A stretch of DNA of 64,000 nucleotides, taken from assembly GCA_950295325.1 (NCBI GenBank), contig OX485809.1, positions 33,186,144 through 33,250,143 on the forward strand. Direction: 5' to 3'. Position numbers and translations under genes: made by a program. How positions within the stretch are numbered: the first letter of the stretch is position 1; each line of letters starts with the position of its first letter. Of the stretch, positions 946 through 22,130 are shown piece after piece. The notes below the pieces were generated by a model. That model saw only the letters and a program-made list of their open reading frames with translations, did no database searches and had not been told where the DNA came from. Source of the DNA: Polytrichum commune. Its lineage: Eukaryota > Streptophyta > Polytrichopsida > Polytrichales > Polytrichaceae.

Positions 946-3639
946 CAAGGACTGTGCCGTGCAGAGAGCCATATCGCAACAGCCGCAAGCCTCCTGCATT
1001 GGTTGATACATTTCCTCCAATTTGGCAACTACCTTTTGCACCCAAATCCAATGGCATGGCGTACCTTGATTCACAAGTGCAAATATTTTCTTTCAGTTTG
1101 GGCTGGTAGAATAGGCAAGAAATCCTTACCTTACAAAGTTCCAAAATTCTTTAAGGCAGGCAAAAGTACACAAACAAAGGAAATGCTACATAAATATTAT
1201 TCCCAGGAGGTTGAAGTAAACATATTCAGCCAATTGTTTCTTTTGAACAATAACAGCTTCGAACATTTAAAAGTGCAGTCTTGAAAGTCCACATTCACAA
1301 AAGCTGGAAAGCAGAAAATCTTATTATCGGAGGGAAAAAAAAAGAAAAAAAGAAGAAGAATGTGAAACCTACCCCTGACTCCCAACAAAGTTATCAAGAT
1401 TCTCCAAAATACAGCCGGCTTCACAAACGAGGATCCCACTGACCTGTATCATTTTTCATAGTGGTCATGTTCAACAACATTAGTATAAACCCCAGTTCTT
1501 GTCCAACTTTCAGAAACAGCAGTGAAACTCGAGGCAATTAGAACTAAGAGCTAGCAGATTCTTCCTAAACATACCTCATCGAAGGAAATAATATTGTTCA
1601 TTGCTCCAAGGTTTAAAATCACCTGCCAACCATTATAATCCAAAAATGAATGAATAATTTGTTGATGACTAAGGTGCATCATGAAGACATTTGTGATCCG
1701 GCAGTAAGCCCAAATTCCATCAATGATCCGAGAAAACTTCCACCTTGTTTCCATAATACCTTCTTCCTCACTATGAGAAGTTGGCAACAAATACTACTGC
1801 TATGATCATAGAGGGTAATCAAAATAAAATACTGCAAAGGAGTTGTAGTAATGTGGAAAATTGGCTGGAAATTCTAACCTCGTCGAATACTGGAACACTA
1901 CCTCCCACCAAGCCAGTGTTACCTCCTTGTGGTACAACTGCTAAAGATCTGGAGTTACAATACTGAAGAATATCAGAAACCTGCCAGCACAAATTCATTC
2001 TTTGTTAAAAACACTTAACTATATAATTGCAATTTGTGAGAGTAGTGGTCACACCAAGTGGCTACAAGGATTTAAGCCTCAAAGCTAAGTTTCCAGAAAA
2101 AGTTCCAGCCACAATGACCTATCACACTGACATGAAGATTACATGGAGGCCAATAATTCAACCCAGAAACCAGTAAACTGGGAACAAAGGAAGACCTTCT
2201 TAACGAAATTGTCAAGATCAAAGTACACATTCCTGCAAGGAAGCTCAAAATTTTCACGTATGAGCTCATCATTGAGTGTTACTGTTATAAGAGTTGTCCT
2301 TAAACTCAATGGACTTTTCATGAGGAGTTGGTCCCTTTATAATTTTTCAGTGGTAGTTTTGCAGAGGATATCCATAATTTCTTTCCACTCATGGAGGTAG
2401 TGATTAAATTTGAATGAAGAGCAACCTATTTTGGTTCATGGAGGGCCATACTCATTTTAGCACCCCTTGGCATGCCAAAATGAGTTTGATCCTCAATGAA
2501 GCTATATAGAATGTTTTTTGTTCAAACCTCCATATTACCTCCAAACATGCACCCAAAAACTTACCGAATATGGAAGGTCTGTATGCAAAACAATCAACTT
2601 CTGATCAAATCTACAGTTGAATTAAAGGATAATTCTATTATCCCAGTTCAATATTGCAATAAGTTGAAAGTTCCAAGAAGAGAAATTCTAACTTGTTGGG
2701 TGGTTTGTGGTTTGAGTAGCAGCTGGCTTTCGCCACGGTACTTGTGCATCCAATCAATGTTGGCCACTGCTAACTCATCTTTGTCCACAACAACGCCCCG
2801 CTCCCCTACAATGTCCTTAAACTTTTGCACATCCTTTTCCTCAAGCTTTGAATATCTGCTGTCTCTGGTGGCTTTTGCTGCTATGCCTGCAAAACCCCTG
2901 TGCCATTTCTTTGAATGCATCACTTGAGAGGATCCTCCATAAACATTTGCAGTCCATCTCTGGGTGCCAAATCCTGCATTCACTGAGGGAAGGAAAGATA
3001 ATGATCACTGAATGCATATTTCCAAAATTAGTTCATGTCCATCTCAATTCGACAAAATGCATTTGGAGGGGGAAAAAAAAAAGAAAAAAAAAAAGGAAAA
3101 AACTCTGCAACAGATCCACTACCTAATCTCCAACCTCAAAACAGTCACTGTCAATAGGCAAACCACTTCCAAAACACACATGCTTCCAAAAAATAATTTA
3201 TAACTCAGTGTTCATTTGGGCAACCTATAGGAAATGGCCAATGCCTTGGTGTCAAATCCTGCATTAACTCAGAAAGGAAAGATAATGATCACTGACTGCA
3301 AATTTCCAAAATTAGTTCATGTCCAGCTCAATTTGACAAAATGCATTCCGAGGGGGAAAAAAACGGTAACAACTCTGCAACGAATCAGCTACCTAATCTC
3401 CAACCTCAAAACAGTCGCTGTCAATGGGCAAACCTCTTCCAATACAAATAATTCTGAAGTTCATAAATCAGTATAATATTTTGGACATTAGAGGCTTCAC
3501 CTTGATGCAGGCCACGATGATTGCACACTTCTTCCTGCTGCGTGAAATTTTTCTCAAACTGAGGGCTTTGTGTCATCAACACTCCTCCCAAAATTCTTGC
3601 TTTCAGCAATTCACACGCGGCTCTCCTTGCTGACAACAT
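946..3639 (-). CDS. D2HGDH: D-2-hydroxyglutarate dehydrogenase, mitochondrial (5' half, six exons; continues past the left edge)
   Basis: FAD-linked enzyme that oxidises D-2-hydroxyglutarate to 2-oxoglutarate in mitochondria and, in plants, passes electrons to the ETF system. Exons by eye: 3501-3639, 2693-2982, 1879-1980, 1575-1622, 1373-1443, 946-1064; all introns are GT-AG and the phases join without a break, giving 256 codons plus one base. Residues 1-46 are Arg/Ala/Leu-rich and look like a mitochondrial presequence. KKWHRGFAG and DWMHKYRG follow. The FAD pyrophosphate-binding loop [12 protein letters not shown] is at about 160-171, and [20 protein letters not shown] followed by AGGLR at about 220-244. 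Full-length family members are about 550 residues, so roughly half is present; I found no further exon at 1-945. The start is the only ATG in the exon that splices in frame. Exon 1 is less certain than exons 2-6, because the same sequence recurs near 20.2 kb. Confidence 0.92.
2285..2655. mobile_element. Foldback (long-hairpin) element, F8 copy 2, in D2HGDH intron 2
   Basis: Second, diverged copy of the 455-860 element, with the same arms (AAAGGATAATTC, TGTATGCAAAAC) and the same central hairpin (2435-2500, TTCATGGAGGGCC against CCTCAATGAA). It ends about 40 bp downstream of the exon 2 donor. Confidence 0.7.
2958..3442. repeat. Tandem duplication spanning the D2HGDH exon 2 acceptor (copies 2958-3172 and 3243-3442)
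   Basis: Both copies share GATAATGATCACTGA, AAATTAGTTCATGTCC, GACAAAATGCATT and CTACCTAATCTCCAACCTC in order, with an offset of about 270-285 bp. Copy 1 contains the working exon 2 acceptor (CCCTCAG, minus strand). Copy 2 carries a degraded acceptor (TTTCTGAG) followed by the same start of exon 2. If copy 2 were used, the reading frame would hit a stop after about 16 codons. Confidence 0.85.
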
Positions 3640-4620
3640 CGCTAAAAACCAACAAAACTTCCTTTGGGCTGCTATTCACAGTCCCCGGGATGCTCATGTG
3701 GGTTAAATTTTCACCAGATTTGGAATTTCAATCAGACCTGCACACTTCTCCCATAATCTGATGTGTATGAAAAACCAGAAAACCACTCAATCCGAGACCT
3801 AAAACTCGCAAACCTGTCCGGAGTCTCAATTTTGAAGTCCAAAGTGGAAAAGCCCAAATGGACACATGTGCTTCAGCTTCTTGAGCCGAATTTCAATCAG
3901 GTCTGCACGCTTCTCCCAAACCCCTGAAGTGTATGAGGGACCAGAAAACCACTCAATATGAGACCTAAAAACTCTCAAACCTGTCCGGAGTCTCAATTGT
4001 TACGTCCTGAGTGGAAGAGCCCATACGGACACATGTCTCTGAACATAATTCTGCAAAATGAGAATATTCTTCCCTGAAGTTAAGCATTTCAATTCAGACC
4101 CATTGTAGCGAAAAGAATTTCAAAATCCAACTTTCCAATTGCCACACAAACCCATAAGGTGACACATCGCGTGCAAACGAAATCGATCGTGTCAAAGATT
4201 TTGTGGCAACAACAAAAAACAATCGATTGCCGAAAACCCAACAAATAAATTCGAAAGACACACAAACTGAGTGCCAGATCTCAAATTTATGCACACAGCA
4301 AGTGTAGAAGTGTCCTGTCAACCCCGAGCTCAATTTACAAAAGTCTCAACATAACCTAATCATCGCCATTAAGCTTAAAGCACTCTACACACATACATAC
4401 ATTCTTTAGGCCGACAAAAGTCCTAACAGGAATTCTTGTCAAATGGATGGCGAACTGGGAAGACCGAATTTGAATGTTTACTTGCACAAACTTATTGGTG
4501 TGCAACCAATCGACCGTAGCAGCTGAATTGCTGGACGAGATAGTGTCTTCAGAATCGATCTTCAAATTGCTTAAGCTCAGAACAAGTCCGAAACTGAGGG
4601 TCCTTGATTCAATTAGTCAT
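3640..4620. promoter_or_regulatory. D2HGDH upstream region with a 165-bp tandem duplication
   Basis: Presumed promoter and 5' UTR of D2HGDH (transcribed leftward). Two diverged copies start at 3724 and 3889 (AATTTCAATCAG, then ACCAGAAAACCACTCAAT and CTGTCCGGAGTCTCAATT), period 165 bp. Nothing coding is visible; weak ORFs on the minus strand lack homology I recognise. The part nearest exon 1 is homologous to 20273-20560. Confidence 0.55.
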
Positions 4621-5077: not shown

Positions 5078-5483
5078 GATTATCCCAATTAGTGAGGGAG
5101 GGCAAATAGTGTGATATCAAATTTTGATTACACTATGAAATTAGTGCCACCAAAAGATCTAGGACGCACTATTCATCCCGGCATTGTTCATCTGACACTA
5201 TTCATTGATTCTTCATAGCAATATTATTCGCTAAAAATACCTACATTATTCATCCTAGCATTATTTGTTGACAAGCATGTATCTGCATATAATATTTTTT
5301 TATCACTCTACAAACACCTCAAAACACGCATTAATTTTTCTTGAAAATATATGGTAAATGAGGATGTATTCATTAAAATTAGTATCACTCAATAAAAATA
5401 AATTCAGTCCTCACTAATTTTTAGACTTGACAAGATAGTGCATGTTTCGGGAATTAGTGCCACATGCCTTAATTAGGATAACC
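5078..5483. mobile_element. TIR element, family F6 copy 1
   Basis: Ends are GATTATCCCAATTAGTGAGG and CCTTAATTAGGATAACC, imperfect inverted repeats. An inverted relative lies at 40038-40413, sharing the subterminal AGTGAGGGAGGG, the inner TTGAGTGATAC-type segment and the end motif. Non-autonomous; no ORF. Confidence 0.7.
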
Positions 5484-7593
5484 AGTATAGGTCAAACAAT
5501 TGTACCCAGTGACGTTTCTTTCCATTTGTTTTTCTGATATGTTCCTTCACCCTCAGTAAGCACACTTTATAATTGTCATTCTTGTATGGGGTCTCTATTG
5601 AGTTAGTTTTCGGAACTTTGAACACTCATCACATACATCCTTATGTCAAGTTCACATAAGGTCACAGTTGGTTTTTGGGTAGCCTGGTCTTTCTAGAACA
5701 CCGTATCCTAGAAAAGTGCACCAAAGCACGTGCACTAATTTTTCTACCAATTATATGTTTTATTTACACAATCGTGTGATATGAACAAGTCTGAACATTA
5801 ATGTATATCCTTAGCAACAACTTTCGGAACATCAACTAGTAACGTTGAAATCATTCAAAATTTTAAACGTAACATTGACAATACAATCGCATGTCATAAA
5901 AAATCATAAATGTTCACTTGGATTGAGTCCATTGAAACATTAAGTAAGCTCATGTCTTATGTTTCCTTGATTGATATATCATTTGTTTGTGAAGATCTAA
6001 CTTCGCAACTTTTTGTGGTTAGGTAGACGAGGTTCATTTGGCTAGCGTCCTTAATCGGATGCCTATTTTGGTATTTAATTGACGGTACAATCGTTTTAAT
6101 TCTATGGGTGAGTAATACATGGTGATTTACTCGCTACATTGATGATATTTGGGTTCAGGTTAGTTGTCATGCAGGTTGTTCACCCACCAAGTTTTAGAGA
6201 AAATGTAGATTCCACTTGATTGAATCTACATTTCCACTAGAATTTGATGCACGAGTGGCCTACATGGAACCTAACCCTTAGTCATCTTTGCAAAAGTCAA
6301 ACTGCACCCAACATGCTCCATAATGAGGAGTCCTATCCACCGAGCTATGACACACTTGATTTTTGAGACAAATTAGGAGGCAGCATGTGGTTGTGAGGTG
6401 CCAAACCAACTTGTATTGTGGGTATTCTATAATGAAAAACAATTCAACAACAAATTACCTTACATGTGACCACTTTAGAGACATGACACAACTAATATTG
6501 ACATTCAACTTGGGTTCATTGGCATCAAACCCATGTAGAATCTATTTTTATTTTGTCCACTTACACAACATTGAACAGTAAAAGAGTTCTCCCCTATAAC
6601 ACCACATTGGAAAATAGAGAATCTTTGATTTTGAAGCCTAGATCAACACCTTCCTCGACTTCGATTTCAAGTATTTCAAATTCTTTGGTCATGATTCGTA
6701 ATTGCTAACATGCTCAAGCTTCTAATGCTCAAATCCATCGACTGGATGATTCCACAGAGTTGGAGGTGTCCACATTAGCCTCATCTACCTTAGTTGGAAC
6801 GACCTCCAAAGATGCTAGAATATAGAAAACGTTCTCATTATTATCCACATCACGGGTATAGCGTTGCAGGTTTGTGCCATACCAATAGCCTTGCTTTTCA
6901 AGGGTGCCCATCTTTGTTATAACATCAACTAGGAATGATTAGGGTCATCATTGAATAAATCATAGGTCACAAGGCTGCTTAAAATGTGCAGAATGGAGGA
7001 GTCTCAAGAGAACATGCATGAATAATTTATGATTGGTAGTGGAAATTGAATGGGATGACTTGCACGTTTGATTTCCACCAACTAAAGATTAGAAGACACG
7101 ACTTCAAAGGATGGTCAAAACTTATACAACCTCTAAGGATGTTACAGTCCATATTTGCTGCATTTGGTTTTGAGAATAACTACAACCAATTCATTTGTAA
7201 CACTAGAGGAATGTTGACGCTCATGTGCTTGAGATTCACGCATTGAAACCGCCGTGGTTCCTTATGTGCAAACAATTTTTTTTGGAGTACCTTGCAGCTT
7301 ATCTTATGAGGGACTCGTTGGAAACCTATGGGATTTAGTTGTAGCATTTGGTACATCAATAAAAGGCTCAGTATTAAACATCTCGTCTTTAAGAACATGG
7401 TTGTTAACCTTGAACTTGTCCACTTGAACTGCATTCATTATGTGATCTTCCTCATCAACCCCTTCAGTGTCGTTGTCGAGGATGTTTAAGTTGTGTGTTC
7501 CTCCAACAACTTTTTTCTGGAAGCACCAACCTCATTGCCCAACATTATAGATGTATCATCATCCTCGGGCTATGAAATAATCGGGTGCAATGT
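5484..7593. other. Intergenic sequence without supportable genes
   Basis: Only short ORFs without recognisable domains occur. No RNA gene or clear repeat was seen; diverged transposon sequence is likely but not shown. Confidence 0.4.
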
Positions 7594-15117: not shown

Positions 15118-18100
15118 TCACATATCATCCTCATCATCATCTTCACCACTTCTTAACCTCTGTTCGGACTCGTTGTCCTGTAATCTCATCTGCTCTCGGA
15201 AATTCCTTAGAAATGCCTCCACCTTCTGATCGACATCCTTATCGCATTCTAAGTCCTTCAGATCCCGATCATCAAATTTATCGTCATCCAGAACCCTCAC
15301 TTCCCGAGCTTGAGCAGACATTTGTCTTCCCAAACCTGGTTGAACCAATGCCACAGTTTCCCGAGATGCCGGGAAAGAATTTAACCTATCGCAATTCACC
15401 TTCCGATCACAGCTATTTACAGATTCTTCTTCTTCTTCCTGATCTAAGCGTTTGGGAGATTGCACCTCAAGGGTTGGTGCTCCGTCCACAACTCCAGCAA
15501 TCATCGATTCAGTGGAAGTTGACAGAGGAGTACAAACAGGGTTTTCCTCAGCTATGTCAGATTTAGCCACAAAAGGTACAATTGCCAGCTCATTACACTC
15601 CACTTCCATCGGTGCAGCATCATCGGCAGCATCTGAATCTGCAGGAGGTGGAGGAGGTGGAGGAAGTAGTTCAAGTTGAACATCGGCAGCATCTTCATCG
15701 TCGTCTTCTTCTTGGAGTGGAGGAGGTGGAGGAGGAAGTGCAAGTGGAATATCGGCAGCATCTTCCTCTTCGGGAAGTGAAGGAGGTCGAGGAGGAAGTG
15801 TAAGTGAAATATCGGCAGCATCTTCCTCTTCGGGCAGTGAAGGAGGTGGAGGAGGAAGTGCAAGTGGAATATCGGCAGCATCTTCCTCTTCGGGAAGTGA
15901 AGGAGGTCGAGGAGGAAGTGTAAGTGGAATATCGGCAGCATCTTCCTCTTCGGGCAGTGAAGGAGGTGGAGGAGGAAGTGCAAGTGGAATATCGGCAGCA
16001 TCTTCCTCTTCGGGAAGTGAAGGAGGTCGAGGAGGAAGTGTAAGTGGAATATCGGCAGCATCTTCCTCTTCGGGCAGTGAAGGAGGTGGAGGAGGACATG
16101 CAAGTGGAATATCGGCAGCATCTTCATCTTCAGAAAGTGGAGGAGGTAGCGGAGGAAGTGCAAGTGGTGCAGAATTGGAAACCGACTTACTCACATCTAT
16201 TAATGCCGATTGAGGAGAGTCAGGAACAGATTCTAGAGTAGGAACGGTTGGAGGCTTTCGTGCAGAATGCCTCACCTTTAAATTTGACTCAGGAACAGGG
16301 GATACAGGTTCCTCGACAGAAGAAAAGTCAAGGGAAATGCTTAGACTCTTCATCAACCTTTGAGGAGAGAATTGTGTAACTTGAAGAGGGGAGGACTTGA
16401 CTGGACTGGGAACAATGGTTGCAGGTTCTTTGACAGAAGAATCAAAGAGGTTGCTAAGACTCTTCCTCAACCTTTGAGGAGACGGGGACTGCACAATTTG
16501 ACGTGGAGAGGATTGTGCGACCTGAAGAGGAATTGACTTAATTGGACTGGAAGAATTGGCTGCAGGTTCTTTGACAGACGAAGAATCGAAGATTTTGCTA
16601 AGGCTCTTCATTAACCTTTGAGGAGGCGGGGACTGCACAGCTTGACGAGGAGAGGATTGCGCAAGCTGATGAGGGGATGATGACTTGACTGGACTGGAAA
16701 CAATGGTTGCAGACTCTTTACCAGAGGAAGAATGAAAGAGATTGCTGATGCTCTTCATCAACCTCTGAGGTGGTGGAGACTGCAGTATAACCTGACGAGG
16801 GGAAAACTTCACTGGACTGGAAACAACGGCTGCATGTTCTTTGACAACAGAAGACTTGTAGTAGTTGCCAACGTTCTTCACCAAGCTCTGAGGAGAAGGA
16901 GCCTGGACAACTTGACGTGGAGAGGATTGCGCAACCTGAAGAGGTGATGACTTCACTGGACTAGGAACAATGACTGCAGGTTCTTTGACAGAAGGAGAAT
17001 TGGAGAAGTTGCTAACACTCTTCGTCGAGCTTTCAGGAGGGGTAGACTGCACAACCTGACGTGGAGAGGATTGCGCGACTTGAAGAGGGGATGACTTCAC
17101 TGGAATGGCAGCAATGGTTGCAGTTTCTTTGACAGAAGTATAGAGATTGCTGGAGCTCTTGATCGGGCTCTGAGGAGGTGGAGTCTCCACAGACTGACAT
17201 GAAGAAGACCTCACTGAACTTGAAACAACGGTCGCAGGCTCCTCAATGGAAGAAGAATTGGAAATGTTGCTAAGGCTCCTCGACGAGCTCTGAGGAGGGG
17301 TAGACTGCACAACCTGATTGGAAGAGGATGACTTGACTGGGCTGGAATCAATGTTTGCAGGTTCCTTGACGGACGAAGAATTGGAGAGATTGCTGGCGCT
17401 CTTGATCGGGCTCTGAGGAGGGGGAATCTGGACAAGCGGACGTGGAGTGGATTGCGTGACCGGAAGAAGGGATGACTTAGCTGGAGTGGGAACAATAACT
17501 GCAGGTTCTTTGACGGAAGAAGAATTGGAGAGGTTGCTATGGCTCTGAGGAGGGGGAGTCTGGACAACCTGACGTGGAGTGGATTGTGCGACCTGAAGAG
17601 GGGAAGACTTAGCTGGAGTGGGAACAATAACTGCAGGTTCTTTGACGGAAGAAGAATTGGAGAGGTTGCTATGGCTCTGAGGAGGGGGAGTCTGGACAAC
17701 CTGACGTGGAGTGGATTGTGCGACCTGAAGAGGGGAAGACTTAGCTGGACTGGGAACAATAACTGCAGGTTCTTTGACGGAAGAAGAATTGGGGAGGTTG
17801 CTAACGCTCTTCTTCGAGCTCTGAGGAGGTGGAGTTTGCACACTCTGACGTGGAGAAGATTGCGCAACCCGAAGAGGGGCTAACTTTACTGGACTGGAAA
17901 CTACGGTTGCAGGTTCTTTCACGGAAGAAGAATTGGAGAGGTTGCTATGGCTCTGAGGAGGGGGAGTCTGGACAACCTGACGTGGAGTGGATTGCGCGAC
18001 CTGAAGAGGGGATGATTTAGCTGGACTGGGAACAATAACTGCAGGCTCTTTGACGGAAGAAGAATTGGGGAGGTTGCTAATGCTCTTCTTCGAGCTCTGA

Positions 18101-19872
18101 GGAGGTGGAGTTTGCACATCCTGACGTGGAGAGGATTGCGCAACCTGAAGAGGGGATGACTTCACTGGACTGGAAACAACGGTTGCAGGTTCTTTGACGG
18201 AAGAAGAATTGGAGAGATTGCTGTGGCTTTTGATCGGGCTCTGAGGAGGGGGAGTCTGGACAACCTGACGTGGAGTGGATTGCACGACCTGAAGAGGGAA
18301 TGACTTAGCTGGACTAGGAACAATAACTGCAGGTTCTTTGACGGAAGAAGAATTGGGGAGGTTGCTAATGCTCTTCTTCGAGCTCTGAGGAGGTGGAGTT
18401 TGAACATCCTGACGTGGAGAGGATTGCGCAACCTGAAGAGGGGCTGACTTCACTGGACTGGAAACAACGGTTGCAGGTTCTTTGACGGAAGCAGAATTGG
18501 AGAGGTTGCTAAGGCTCTTGATAGGGCTCTGAGGAGGGGGTGTCTGGACAACCTGACGTGGAGAGGATTTTGCCACCTGAAGAGGAGAAGACTGCAGATG
18601 AGGAGTAGGAGACTGCACAACCGCCCGAGCGGGGGACTCAACTACTCGAGGAGGAGCAGGAGATTGCACAACTTGCTTAGGAGTCTGAACAACCTGACGG
18701 GAAGGAGTATCCTCGACCACCTTCGGACCGGAAGATTGAACAGATCGTGGAGGAGAGGACTGCACTATCTTAGGATGAGATTTCATAACCTGACGAGGGG
18801 GGGAATGCACGACCTTGCGAGGTGAGGATTGGATGGATTTTCGAGGAGAGAGTTGGCGTCTGCGAGGAGGAGATTTGACAAGCTCCCGAGAGGGAGGATT
18901 GACAAGCTGGCGAGGGGAGGAATGCATAAAAGGAGGAGAGGAATGACCCACTGGAAATGACAAGGGCTGCTCATAGCTGGGACCATCATCTACCCTGGAT
19001 GCAAAAAGAGGCATCGGGCGGAGTGACGACCTTTCTGTAGGGAGAGGATGTTTAATCGGAGTATATGGAAGTGAGCCATGATTTCGAGATGAAGTATCCA
19101 GAGGAAGAGGATGAAGACCATCCAGAGGAAAAGCCCGCCCAATCTGCGCATATGAAAGTGGCACTTGTTGCAGGGATGATGATAAAGTCTTCATGTGGTG
19201 AGGATGCAATTCACGTGCAAACCTTGCTTCATCTTCACGTTTGTATCTCTCTTCTACGCTGTCCTCAAACTTTCGCGAATAGGGTATAGTGTGAGAAGAA
19301 ACGACGGTGGGATAGTAAGGAGGAAGAGTTACCGAGATCGGTTGGGCAACCCGAACAGACATGGGACTAGCGGTCGCAGCAGCGGCACTTCCCCTCGCAG
19401 ATTCTGATGGTGAGTAGAACAGATCAGACATGCTTAACCGATCCGTCTGCGATTCCGTTGCAGGCGGCGCCGGAATAGAATAAGTGTCCGTAACTTGAGT
19501 GATTTGCTCCTGCGAGCTTCCTTCCTTGGATCCAGAGAGCATACCAGATGTGGCAATCATGATTCCTACAATCATGAAGATGAAACAAAGCGAGGGCGTA
19601 CACCAATCCGCCATCACCTCCTTCAACCACATCACCGACTCCGGGGGAGGTATGATAGCCATGAGCACCAGAAGGAGTACAAACATGATTGTGAAGAACC
19701 TCGTCACGACAATCTCACAGAGTTTTCGGAGAGTTGTGTGCCGTGGTTCTTCATTTCGCTTCATTTGGTTCCCAGCTGCGTCACCCTGGAATCCCTCAAA
19801 ACCTCGTTGATTCATGCTCTCCAACTGTGCAGATATATCATACGATAACATGCGGGAAGCTCCAGTAGCCAT
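15118..19872 (-). CDS. Giant DUF4408/DUF761-like plant membrane protein with proline-rich repeats
   Basis: Single-exon ORF of 1,584 codons from MATGASRM. The frame is open 12 codons further, but that stretch follows an acceptor-like TTTCCTAG and is probably intron, so I start at 19872. Residues about 53-74 and 93-112 are two hydrophobic membrane segments in the place of the DUF4408 N-terminus. The end, VDQKVEAFLRNFREQMRLQ (about 1547-1565), matches the DUF761 signature, followed by an acidic tail. Family members are usually a few hundred residues and of unknown biochemical role. Here the middle is swollen: about 17 units of 44-48 residues (roughly 440-1180; motifs PLQVAQSSPRQ, TPPPQS, SSSVKEPA) and about eight 20-residue units, SLPEEEDAADIPL plus Pro-rich (roughly 1230-1395). 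Extensin-like composition with repeated SPR/PPP suggests an extended region. Family assignment is by motif recognition only. Confidence 0.82.
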   Translation of the reverse strand: MATGASRMLSYDISAQLESMNQRGFEGFQGDAAGNQMKRNEEPRHTTLRKLCEIVVTRFFTIMFVLLLVLMAIIPPPESVMWLKEVMADWCTPSLCFIFMIVGIMIATSGMLSGSKEGSSQEQITQVTDTYSIPAPPATESQTDRLSMSDLFYSPSESARGSAAAATASPMSVRVAQPISVTLPPYYPTVVSSHTIPYSRKFEDSVEERYKREDEARFARELHPHHMKTLSSSLQQVPLSYAQIGRAFPLDGLHPLPLDTSSRNHGSLPYTPIKHPLPTERSSLRPMPLFASRVDDGPSYEQPLSFPVGHSSPPFMHSSPRQLVNPPSRELVKSPPRRRQLSPRKSIQSSPRKVVHSPPRQVMKSHPKIVQSSPPRSVQSSGPKVVEDTPSRQVVQTPKQVVQSPAPPRVVESPARAVVQSPTPHLQSSPLQVAKSSPRQVVQTPPPQSPIKSLSNLSNSASVKEPATVVSSPVKSAPLQVAQSSPRQDVQTPPPQSSKKSISNLPNSSSVKEPAVIVPSPAKSFPLQVVQSTPRQVVQTPPPQSPIKSHSNLSNSSSVKEPATVVSSPVKSSPLQVAQSSPRQDVQTPPPQSSKKSISNLPNSSSVKEPAVIVPSPAKSSPLQVAQSTPRQVVQTPPPQSHSNLSNSSSVKEPATVVSSPVKLAPLRVAQSSPRQSVQTPPPQSSKKSVSNLPNSSSVKEPAVIVPSPAKSSPLQVAQSTPRQVVQTPPPQSHSNLSNSSSVKEPAVIVPTPAKSSPLQVAQSTPRQVVQTPPPQSHSNLSNSSSVKEPAVIVPTPAKSSLLPVTQSTPRPLVQIPPPQSPIKSASNLSNSSSVKEPANIDSSPVKSSSSNQVVQSTPPQSSSRSLSNISNSSSIEEPATVVSSSVRSSSCQSVETPPPQSPIKSSSNLYTSVKETATIAAIPVKSSPLQVAQSSPRQVVQSTPPESSTKSVSNFSNSPSVKEPAVIVPSPVKSSPLQVAQSSPRQVVQAPSPQSLVKNVGNYYKSSVVKEHAAVVSSPVKFSPRQVILQSPPPQRLMKSISNLFHSSSGKESATIVSSPVKSSSPHQLAQSSPRQAVQSPPPQRLMKSLSKIFDSSSVKEPAANSSSPIKSIPLQVAQSSPRQIVQSPSPQRLRKSLSNLFDSSVKEPATIVPSPVKSSPLQVTQFSPQRLMKSLSISLDFSSVEEPVSPVPESNLKVRHSARKPPTVPTLESVPDSPQSALIDVSKSVSNSAPLALPPLPPPLSEDEDAADIPLACPPPPPSLPEEEDAADIPLTLPPRPPSLPEEEDAADIPLALPPPPPSLPEEEDAADIPLTLPPRPPSLPEEEDAADIPLALPPPPPSLPEEEDAADISLTLPPRPPSLPEEEDAADIPLALPPPPPPLQEEDDDEDAADVQLELLPPPPPPPADSDAADDAAPMEVECNELAIVPFVAKSDIAEENPVCTPLSTSTESMIAGVVDGAPTLEVQSPKRLDQEEEEESVNSCDRKVNCDRLNSFPASRETVALVQPGLGRQMSAQAREVRVLDDDKFDDRDLKDLECDKDVDQKVEAFLRNFREQMRLQDNESEQRLRSGEDDDEDDM
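15690..16190 (-). repeat. 60-bp coding minisatellite in the DUF761-type gene (about eight units, 120-bp higher order)
   Basis: Each 60-bp unit encodes a Pro-rich block followed by LPEEEDAADIPL. Units alternate between a PPPPPS and a PPRPPS form and between CGGGAAGTGAAGG and CGGGCAGTGAAGG, so the true homogenised unit is 120 bp. The near identity indicates recent expansion or gene conversion. Confidence 0.93.
16340..18590 (-). repeat. 132/144-bp coding repeats in the DUF761-type gene (about 17 units)
   Basis: Units are 144 bp (48 codons), or 132 bp when four codons (SPIK/SSKK position) are missing; for example CTCTGAGG recurs at 17543, 17675 and 17819. All length changes are multiples of three, so the frame is kept. 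Units near the C-terminal end are more diverged than those near the N-terminus. Confidence 0.9.
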
Positions 19873-20133
19873 GATCCTTACTTGCACAACGCACCTAGGA
19901 AACACCATGATTTCAGGTTAGATAGGCCGACCAATTCCACTCGGAGCTCTGCAAATTAGAAAATGTCTTCTTCTAGGTTAAGCAATAATTACTATGCGCA
20001 CCACTCCAGAAACACATACTACTACTGACAGCATATACAATGCTTTCGGGGACTGATAGGAAATGGCCAATCTCTGTTTTGTGAACACAAAATAAGATGC
20101 TTCAATATTGCGAGAAGACAGAGGCTGAATCAC

Positions 20134-20272
20134 CTTGATTGGTGTGCAGGTCACAACAGCACGTTCCTTCCTGCTCCGTGATTTTTTCCTCAAACGGAGG
20201 TGTTCGTATCAAAACTCCTCCCAAAAGTCTTGCATTCGACGATTCACCCCCGGTTCTCCTTGTTTTCAACAT
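20134..20272 (-). other. Candidate leader exon homologous to D2HGDH exon 1
   Basis: Minus-strand ORF from ATG at 20272, 46 codons plus one base, ending at donor AATCAAG|GTGATT. This is exactly the length and phase of D2HGDH exon 1 (CATCAAG|GTGAAG). Ungapped hand alignment gives 18 of 46 identical residues, with ARLLGGVL and TEQE matching ARILGGVL and TQQE. Spliced to the acceptor at about 19893 it would read five codons and stop a few bases before the DUF761-type ATG, making it an upstream ORF. Confidence 0.55.
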
Positions 20273-20570
20273 TGCTGAAAATCAACGCAATTTTCCTTGT
20301 GCCTTTCACAATCCTCATCTGTGTCGCTTTTGCACGAAATTTGAACTTCAATCAGACCATCGCTCAAAGAGTGTGTTGAAGGCCTGCATACTTCACCAAA
20401 ACCCTGGTGCGTACGAGCGACCAGAAAACAGTCAATCTATTACTCTCAGCACTGTAAATCAATGCAGTCGCTCTCTTCCGCTTGAAGATCCTGACTTCAC
20501 CAAAACACGTGTGCACAAGTCTGATACTTGGTGTCAGACTTTCATACTTTACATCACACAAGATTTGGAC
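20273..20570 (-). promoter_or_regulatory. Probable promoter region of the DUF761-type gene, homologous to the D2HGDH promoter
   Basis: Continues the homology upstream of the leader exon: TTTGAACTTCAATCAGACC and ACCAGAAAACAGTCAATC here match GGAATTTCAATCAGACC and ACCAGAAAACCACTCAATC upstream of D2HGDH. Both copies are in the same orientation. No TATA box is clear enough to call. Confidence 0.5.
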
Positions 20571-21600
20571 TGATCTCCCACAACTTAGTTAAGCTCATCC
20601 TTTGATAAGCAATTTTCGACGACAGATGGAAAGAAATAATTGACCTCCTTGTGCCGCAGGTAGTACTCTTAGTGAGTTTCTAATGAAGAGACCGATACCA
20701 ATCCATACGTCAATTCTAACACCCTCCTCCTCTCAGAATTGAAAAGAAGATGACACAATTGTTGGCCTGTACTCAAATAATACTCGTGAAGCAATCGATC
20801 GAGAAAGTCTTGCAAAAAGTGCAATCACAATAATTAACTCATTTACTGTAGATCTTGTGTGCACGTTTCGCTACGTAGGGTAGGCCAGCCAAAGGAAACG
20901 GCGACTCTACTCCACTTGCAAAAGATTCACACGGAAGAGCATGGAACCAGGCGCACAAGCCACAACAAAACGACCAGTAAGGCTTGCAATATTGAAGGAA
21001 GGAAATGCTTGACTTGGGGGTCTGATCTGTAAATGCGAAGCACAGACAAGGAGAGCATACTCAAGAAATCTTAGAATTCGATTTACCTATACTAGGACAG
21101 CGCGCATCACCGTCAACAGCGGAAGTCTTGCTGTCTCTCAGCACACAAACGAAGACAACGAAACAATGAGAATCTTCTTCTCCATCAAGAACGACGAGAA
21201 TCCACATAATGTCAACTCCCACATACACTTGAAGTGAACAAAAACAACAAAGAAAACCATAGCCAAAACTCACCTCACTTCCAGATGCTGAAATACCAAA
21301 CCGACAACTCCTTTAATGGAGTTGAAATCGCCAAAATCCAAAGGTGACACCGCGCCATACAACAGTCTCACGCCTCCTCCTCCCGCTACTTCAGAACTTC
21401 GAAGCACTTTCCATGAAACGCAACGCCCTCCCCCGCCCCCCTCCTCCTCAGCGAGCACTAAGGCAATTACAAATCGAAGACTGAGATCATAGGCTTCATC
21501 ACAAAGGGGAATGGAATCGCCGTTTCTTCAGGACAATTATGAACCCGAGTTTGCTCGACAATAGACTCGCAATGCAGGCTCTCCGAGTCTTGACAGCGAA
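20571..21600. other. Upstream intergenic sequence
   Basis: May contain further 5' exons or regulatory DNA of the DUF761-type gene. Small ORFs of this stretch carry no recognisable domain. Confidence 0.35.
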
Positions 21601-21604
21601 TACA

Positions 21605-21885
21605 GGAATCAACCACCGGATGAGATTCACCAAACGTAATGGTCAACCTGGTGATGCTAAGATGACGAGAGAGTGAAATCTTGTTCTGTGTGAGAGCGCG
21701 ACACAAGAACCGAAGAAGGCTCCCAAGGATTGACACCGAAAACGAGAATGATCTACCGGATGAGATTCAACACAGCCGGGTGACGCTCAGATGATGAGAA
21801 AGTGAAATCCTAGTCTGTTTGAGACTGGAACACAAGAATGAAGAATGCTCCAAGGATTGCCACCGGAAACAGGGATGATCTACTG
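21605..21885. repeat. Tandem duplication of about 130 bp (two copies)
   Basis: CCGGATGAGATTCA, GAGAAAGTGAAATC-type, ACACAAGAA and CAAGGATTG(A/C)CACCG recur in order in 21617-21755 and 21757-21880. Confidence 0.8.
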
Positions 21886-21939
21886 GACAATTGGCTCACC
21901 TGCAGATACAACGCAATGCAACGGAAGGCGAGGACAGGC

Positions 21940-22130
21940 CGAGAAGGGAGAGGAGAAGAAGAAGAAAAAGGAACACCGGAAGCTGGAGAAGCTTGAAGGC
22001 AAGGGAGGGGAAGAAGGGAAGCTCGGTGGAGGGGGTGGCCCGGTGGAAAGCCGGGCTGCCCGGCGCCGATATCCACCACGTGGACGTCGGAAACCCCCGG
22101 GTGGCCCGGGGTTCCCGAGGGGTATGATCC
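21940..22130. other. GC-rich, purine-rich island
   Basis: A purine-rich stretch (GAGAAGAAGAAG type) leads into GGTGGCCCGGTGGAAAGCC and GGTGGCCCGGGGTTC. The CCCGGTGGAAnGCCGGG motif is also the unit of the minisatellite at 32117-32372. It is much more GC-rich than its surroundings. ORFs on both strands are composition artefacts. Confidence 0.5.

What the first reader, a model, noticed from the sequence alone, without database searches (positions are those of the whole stretch)
20134..20570. A promoter-plus-leader module shared by D2HGDH and the DUF761-type gene
Sequence at 20134-20570 is homologous, in the same orientation, to 3501-3960. Each copy includes a minus-strand ORF of exactly 46 codons plus one base ending at a GTGA donor, with 18 of 46 residues identical, and then shared upstream DNA. 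Indels between copies compensate, so length and phase are kept. In D2HGDH the ORF is a plausible mitochondrial presequence; at 20.2 kb it precedes an unrelated gene. Either a promoter/first-exon cassette was duplicated about 16.5 kb apart and adopted by another gene, or both sit on a dispersed element that supplies first exons. If spliced to the acceptor at about 19893 the second copy is an upstream ORF; a weak in-frame alternative acceptor inside the first codons would instead fuse it to the protein.
Basis: partly seen in the sequence, partly recalled or inferred. Interest (0 to 1): 0.75.

Follow-up and report, generated by a model that had tools for sequence, protein, structure and literature searches.

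The report
Copied first exon, probably a relic
In what looks like a moss genome, the start of a metabolic enzyme gene (D2HGDH) was copied long ago about 16.6 kb away, upstream of an unrelated gene; the copy is real and no third one was found, but nothing shows that the second gene uses it, so it is most likely a decaying local duplication.

Summary
Two same-strand segments 16.6 kb apart (A, 3957 to about 3140; B, about 20437 to 19985) are homologous: 182 of 258 columns in the core. Each carries a 46-codon ORF plus one base before a GTGA donor. Genome searches found only these two copies, so a dispersed element is unlikely. The homology reaches into the intron past the donor; above 20437 it is not established.

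"Promoter-plus-leader module adopted by the DUF761 gene" is only partly supported. The shared ORF shows no purifying selection in any of six frames. Of 20 AG sites tested, only 19880 and 19859 read on into the DUF761 frame; 19880 ranks 129 of 149, 19859 was not ranked. The best nearby acceptor, 19948, makes the leader an upstream ORF of 69 codons. A pyrimidine- and CpG-rich candidate 5' exon with the strongest donor (21274) lies 1 kb further up. The copy therefore probably sits inside a 5'-UTR intron, as a relic or at most an optional exon. A is the likelier donor, by phase and by absence at the DUF761 paralogues. No transcript data and no related species were available.

The parts
3501..3639 (-). 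Copy A: candidate first coding exon of D2HGDH, 46 codons plus one base, donor CAAG|GTGAAG
   Evidence: donor ranks 3 of 140 GT sites; in phase with the exon 2 acceptor at 2973
3140..3957 (-). Whole shared block in A: upstream DNA, exon, first part of intron 1 (3' edge approximate)
20134..20272 (-). Copy B: homologous ORF, 46 codons plus one base, donor CAAG|GTGATT
   Evidence: donor ranks 3 of 178 GT sites
19985..20437 (-). Whole shared block in B (edges approximate); homology above 20437 not established
2648..3004 (-). Open frame holding D2HGDH exon 2 (acceptor first base 2973); D2HGDH continues to lower coordinates and beyond the window
   Evidence: exon 2 plus an exon 3 piece matches human D2HGDH 6lpn at 1.7e-23; further exon pieces hit FAD_binding_4 and FAD-oxidase_C; this frame alone has no Pfam hit
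2960..3446 (-). Tandem duplication in A's intron 1 (3446-3245 ~ 3176-2960, 83%), doubling the acceptor and the start of exon 2
3723..4036 (-). Tandem duplication upstream of A's exon (4036-3888 ~ 3869-3723, 85%)
15118..19948 (-). Large exon of the DUF761 gene; open frame of 1599 codons from 19917, DUF761 at its C-end, candidate acceptor TTTGCAG|AGCTCC at 19948
   Evidence: paralogues C1:11874239 and C7:3615117
19878..20272 (-). Inferred upstream ORF if B is spliced to 19948: 69 codons, TAA at 19880-19878, overlapping ATG 19908 and ending 5 nt before ATG 19872
   Evidence: with the sequence
21274..22100 (-). Candidate true 5' end of the DUF761 gene: CpG- and pyrimidine-rich start, candidate leader exon ending at donor TGAG|GTGAGT (21274)
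   Evidence: inferred, no transcript

Best explanation
A roughly 0.5-0.8 kb piece of the 5' part of the D2HGDH gene (upstream DNA, candidate first coding exon, start of intron 1) was copied in the same orientation about 16.6 kb away, into DNA just upstream of the large exon of a DUF761 gene. Shown: homology, orientation, no third copy found, ORF and donor sequence in both. Inferred: A is the donor; the event is older than A's own tandem duplications; the copy lies within a 5'-UTR intron of the DUF761 gene whose own first exon is near 22.0-21.27 kb. There it is most likely a decaying relic. If it is included in transcripts, as an optional exon or an alternative first exon, it adds an upstream ORF of 69 codons that would be expected to lower translation of the main ORF, and not a targeting peptide.
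For: Homology. Two copies: (2 of 2 candidates scored in each); two searches found only the query itself (1 of 1). A in phase with a conserved D2HGDH exon. No purifying selection: NG86: 2 synonymous and 27 nonsynonymous differences in 44 codons; 0 of 12 frame tests with a synonymous excess at 5%. In-frame fusion would need 19880 or 19859, 2 of 20 AG sites. Best nearby acceptor 19948, rank 3 of 149. In paralogue L010 the best-scoring acceptor of the scanned stretch lies directly upstream of its candidate start. Candidate 5' exon: donor 21274 ranks 1 of 178; 78% pyrimidine at 22000-21901; 10 CpG at 22100-22001. Order of events: A's repeats 83-85% identical against 71% for A/B; B about equally far from A's two upstream repeat copies.
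Against: An open, phase-kept ORF in B is expected neutrally in only 2.5-7.0% of simulations, which hints at some use. B's donor 20134 ranks 3 of 178, and B also holds acceptors (20383, rank 2 of 149, higher than 19948; 20274, rank 9) that could define an exon. The splice weights are recalled and approximate. Paralogue L011 does not have its best acceptor next to its start. D2HGDH exon 1 itself is a prediction. No RNA data and no related species, so neither direction nor the upstream 5' exon is proven.
Confidence: 0.66

Rival explanations
1. Promoter and first-exon capture: the copied block works as a promoter or alternative first exon of the DUF761 gene, giving D2HGDH-like expression and an upstream ORF.
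For: Upstream DNA is shared, the donor sequence is intact in both copies, a good acceptor lies about 186 nt downstream (19948), and the ORF is open and phase-kept.
Against: No start site is shown in either copy. The shared block lacks the pyrimidine- and CpG-rich composition seen at 22.1-21.9 kb. A stronger donor and candidate leader exon lie upstream. No sign of protein constraint.
Confidence: 0.22
2. Presequence capture: the leader is fused in frame and targets the DUF761 protein to mitochondria.
For: Both leaders are net positive in the first 20 residues (4 basic, 1 acidic), and an in-frame acceptor exists at 19880.
Against: That acceptor ranks 129 of 149. No amphipathic excess over shuffles (1644 and 1332 of 2000 shuffles as high). 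No purifying selection. The genome searches gave no leader match at the two paralogues.
Confidence: 0.03
3. Dispersed element that supplies first exons to several genes.
For: Two copies before two genes in one orientation.
Against: Only two copies found in 408 Mb at this sensitivity, against 43 matches from 1786 candidates (40 scored) for a neighbouring repeat. No convincing terminal repeats or target duplications (8-mers at about the rate I would expect by chance).
Confidence: 0.03
4. Opposite direction: the block belonged to the DUF761 gene and D2HGDH took it as its first exon.
For: No outgroup was available; the homology itself is symmetrical.
Against: The ORF is in phase with the following exon in D2HGDH but not, by the best acceptor, in the DUF761 gene, and the searches found it at neither DUF761 paralogue.
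Confidence: 0.08

Closest known systems
Duplication of existing mitochondrial presequences in plants (rice rps11-1 from atp2, Arabidopsis sdh3 from hsp70, carrot rps10 from hsp22; as summarised in PMC2631504, passages seen)
   Same: A 5' coding segment of one gene found again before another gene, here from a gene for a probably mitochondrial enzyme.
   Different: There, as summarised, the presequence serves the receiving protein; here the copy does not read into the receiving protein by any plausible splice, and presequence function is untested.
Acquisition of a 5'-UTR via a transposable element, rice OsRpl6-1 (PMC2631504, passages seen)
   Same: New 5'-UTR material and a 5'-UTR intron upstream of an existing coding exon.
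   Different: There the source is a multicopy transposable element and a cDNA is shown; here only two copies were found and there is no transcript.
Exon shuffling by recombination within introns (general mechanism, recalled)
   Same: The shared block ends inside the intron, 3' of an intact donor sequence.
   Different: A chimaeric transcript is not shown.

Membership tests
Presequence acquisition by duplication | Copied leader read in frame into the receiving protein | tested here: not met
   2 of 20 AG sites keep the frame, 19880 and 19859; 19880 ranks 129 of 149, 19859 not ranked; a prediction, not a transcript
Presequence acquisition by duplication | Leader targets mitochondria | not testable with these tools
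   Only charge and hydrophobic moment computed; no amphipathic excess
Presequence acquisition by duplication | Leader under protein-level constraint | tested here: not met
   one pair of 44 codons
Promoter / first-exon capture | Transcripts of the receiving gene start in the copied block | not testable with these tools
   no RNA data
Promoter / first-exon capture | Shared DNA upstream of the exon | tested here: met
   (to about 3957/20437)
Dispersed first-exon element | Many copies at gene starts | tested here: not met
   two copies; repeat control
Dispersed first-exon element | Terminal repeats or target-site duplications | tested here: inconclusive
   two 8-nt direct and one 8-nt inverted match near the edges, no shuffle control run
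Upstream ORF in a 5' leader | ATG-led ORF before or overlapping the main start in the mature mRNA | tested here: inconclusive
   69 codons if 20134 is spliced to 19948; that splice is predicted, not observed

The most novel reading that the evidence does not exclude
The copied D2HGDH exon is an optional 5' exon (or alternative first exon) of the DUF761 gene: including it adds a 69-codon upstream ORF that holds down translation of the 1599-codon frame, and the shared upstream DNA would tie the gene's expression to that of an enzyme gene 16.6 kb away.
Probability: 0.17. Interest if true: 0.5.

Novelty: new member of a known kind. Interest (0 to 1): 0.27.

Why it matters
If the copy is used, it would be a local example of a first exon being moved by duplication into an intron and turned from a coding leader into a regulatory upstream ORF. 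If it is not used, it shows how an open ORF and a splice-donor sequence can outlive a duplication without function, a caution for gene models and for reading 'conserved phase' as evidence of use.

Tried and rejected
Dispersed element: set aside on copy number (with the control). Larger segmental duplication: a comparison of the window and 8.9 kb beside it (pairs over 45 bits and more than 9 kb apart, left partner below 24.5 kb) listed no other same-orientation pair at the 16.6 kb offset. The same list holds several pairs as strong as or stronger than A/B at other offsets or inverted, so A/B is not the strongest dispersed pair here; one of them belongs to a high-copy repeat, the others were not searched. 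Antisense coding: the 144-codon plus-strand frame over B (20139-20573) has no Pfam match, is broken in A and has no synonymous excess. Positive selection on the leader: NG86 gives omega 4.5, and about 0.3% of 3000 neutral simulations are as extreme; a second counting gives 9.4% of 1000, so it was dropped. Target-site duplication of an insertion: only 8-mers of the kind chance gives (no shuffles). Shared 5' DNA with the DUF761 paralogues: one search listed only coding stretches and two short matches at 22.8 and 23.1 kb. A bacterial-type promoter scan was uninformative here. Literature: searches (exon shuffling with presequence, D2HGDH with moss, presequence acquisition, DUF761 with moss, exonization with uORF); judged by the titles and abstract starts that were listed, and only part of the holdings was listed, none treats this case. 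Only passages of PMC2631504 were read. The structure predictor, the RNA-family search and the viral, bacterial, phage and plasmid collections were not used.

Full report
What is there. On the minus strand, D2HGDH begins near 3.6 kb and runs off the low end of the window. Identity: an exon 2 plus exon 3 piece matches human D2HGDH 6lpn at 1.7e-23. Of seven further pieces scanned, five hit FAD_binding_4 or FAD-oxidase_C, two of these above the curated cut-off, and two hit nothing; the exon 2 frame alone hit nothing in Pfam. A genome search with exon 2 found only this locus. The second gene is a 1599-codon open frame, 19917-15118, with DUF761 at its C-end and two related loci elsewhere. The genome looks like a moss: the closest solved PsaB chains are 8htu, 6l35 and 7ksq, which I recall as Physcomitrium structures; the table gives no organism.

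The homology. Segments 3738-3490 and 20358-20120 align over 258 columns with 182 identities; a second piece, 3957-3899 versus 20436-20380, matches at 78% of 59 columns (0 of 500 shuffles). Each carries ATG plus 46 codons plus one base and a GTGA donor. Identity is similar inside and outside the ORF: 27 differences in 132 aligned bases against 21 in 86 upstream, and none in the 12 columns 3501-3490. The match resumes further into the intron around an exact 16-mer at 3242/20071, so the duplicated block ends inside the intron and not at the exon. Above 20437 an alignment continues to 20584, but that stretch alone is weak: 17, 63 or 103 of 500 shuffles score as high, depending on the part of A offered.

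Copy number. The genome-wide DNA searches with A and with B each returned the query and the other copy, 2 of 2 candidates scored. The leader peptide gave the same two places; A's further upstream DNA and its intron gave only themselves. For comparison, a repeat at 5078-5489 gave 43 matches from 1786 candidates, 40 of them scored. Copies well below 70% identity could be missed.

Order of events. A carries two tandem duplications of its own, 85% and 83% identical. B is about equally far from A's two upstream repeat copies (78% of 59 columns and 75% of 56), and A/B identity is lower (71%). So the A/B split is probably older, if gene conversion did not intervene. Direction A to B is inferred from phase and from the absence of a leader match at the paralogues; it is not proven.

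Does the ORF matter? The NG86 count finds 2 synonymous and 27 nonsynonymous differences in 44 codons; about 0.3% of 3000 neutral simulations are as extreme on the nonsynonymous side. A simpler codon count finds 1 and 21, with 9.4% of 1000 simulations as low. Neither supports purifying selection, and 0 of 12 frame tests, both strands, show a synonymous excess at 5%. Against this, simulated neutral decay keeps an open, in-phase, ATG-led ORF in only 2.5-7.0% of runs. The leader peptides are net positive but show no amphipathic excess.

How B relates to the DUF761 gene. With recalled, approximate plant splice weights, the best acceptor near the large exon is 19948 (rank 3 of 149 AG sites between 22200 and 19860); 19894 ranks 12 and the fusion acceptor 19880 ranks 129. 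Rank 2 is 20383, inside B, so B could also be an internal exon. Spliced to 19948, B becomes an upstream ORF of 69 codons ending at 19880-19878, overlapping the ATG at 19908 and ending 5 nt before the ATG at 19872. Which ATG starts the protein is open: the three-paralogue alignment lines up the second one. Two strong donors, 21274 and 21900, rank 1 and 2 of 178, downstream of a stretch with up to 78% pyrimidine and 10 CpG per 100 nt. Paralogue L010 has its top acceptor directly before its candidate start and its top donor 1.1 kb upstream; paralogue L011 does not show this. I therefore place the copy inside a 5'-UTR intron as the likeliest, unproven, arrangement.

Verdict. A real, local duplication of a gene's 5' part with no third copy found; interesting if transcribed, ordinary if not. 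Known counterparts exist for both presequence copying and 5'-UTR acquisition in plants (passages of PMC2631504).

Noticed in passing
window 21346-21718 (and 21717-21845): One other copy was found in the genome, C5:20948080-20948446, 82% identical over 377 columns; several open frames of 120 codons or more lie around it, which I suspect, from memory only, to be transposon-like. The window stretch also holds an internal tandem repeat.
   Followed up: partly
window 2960-3446: Tandem duplication doubles the intron 1 acceptor of D2HGDH and the start of exon 2; the upstream acceptor (3258) scores higher than the one in phase (2973), so a cryptic exon or mis-splicing is possible.
   Followed up: partly
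window 15118-19917: The DUF761 frame holds long repeats with spacings mostly of 132-147 nt (44-49 residues) and a second array of 60-nt (20-residue) repeats.
   Followed up: no
window 5078-5489: High-copy dispersed repeat, 43 matches from 1786 candidates (40 scored), 1.1 kb upstream of the D2HGDH block.
   Followed up: yes
window 20139-20573: Plus-strand frame of 144 codons open over copy B, broken in A, no Pfam match.
   Followed up: yes
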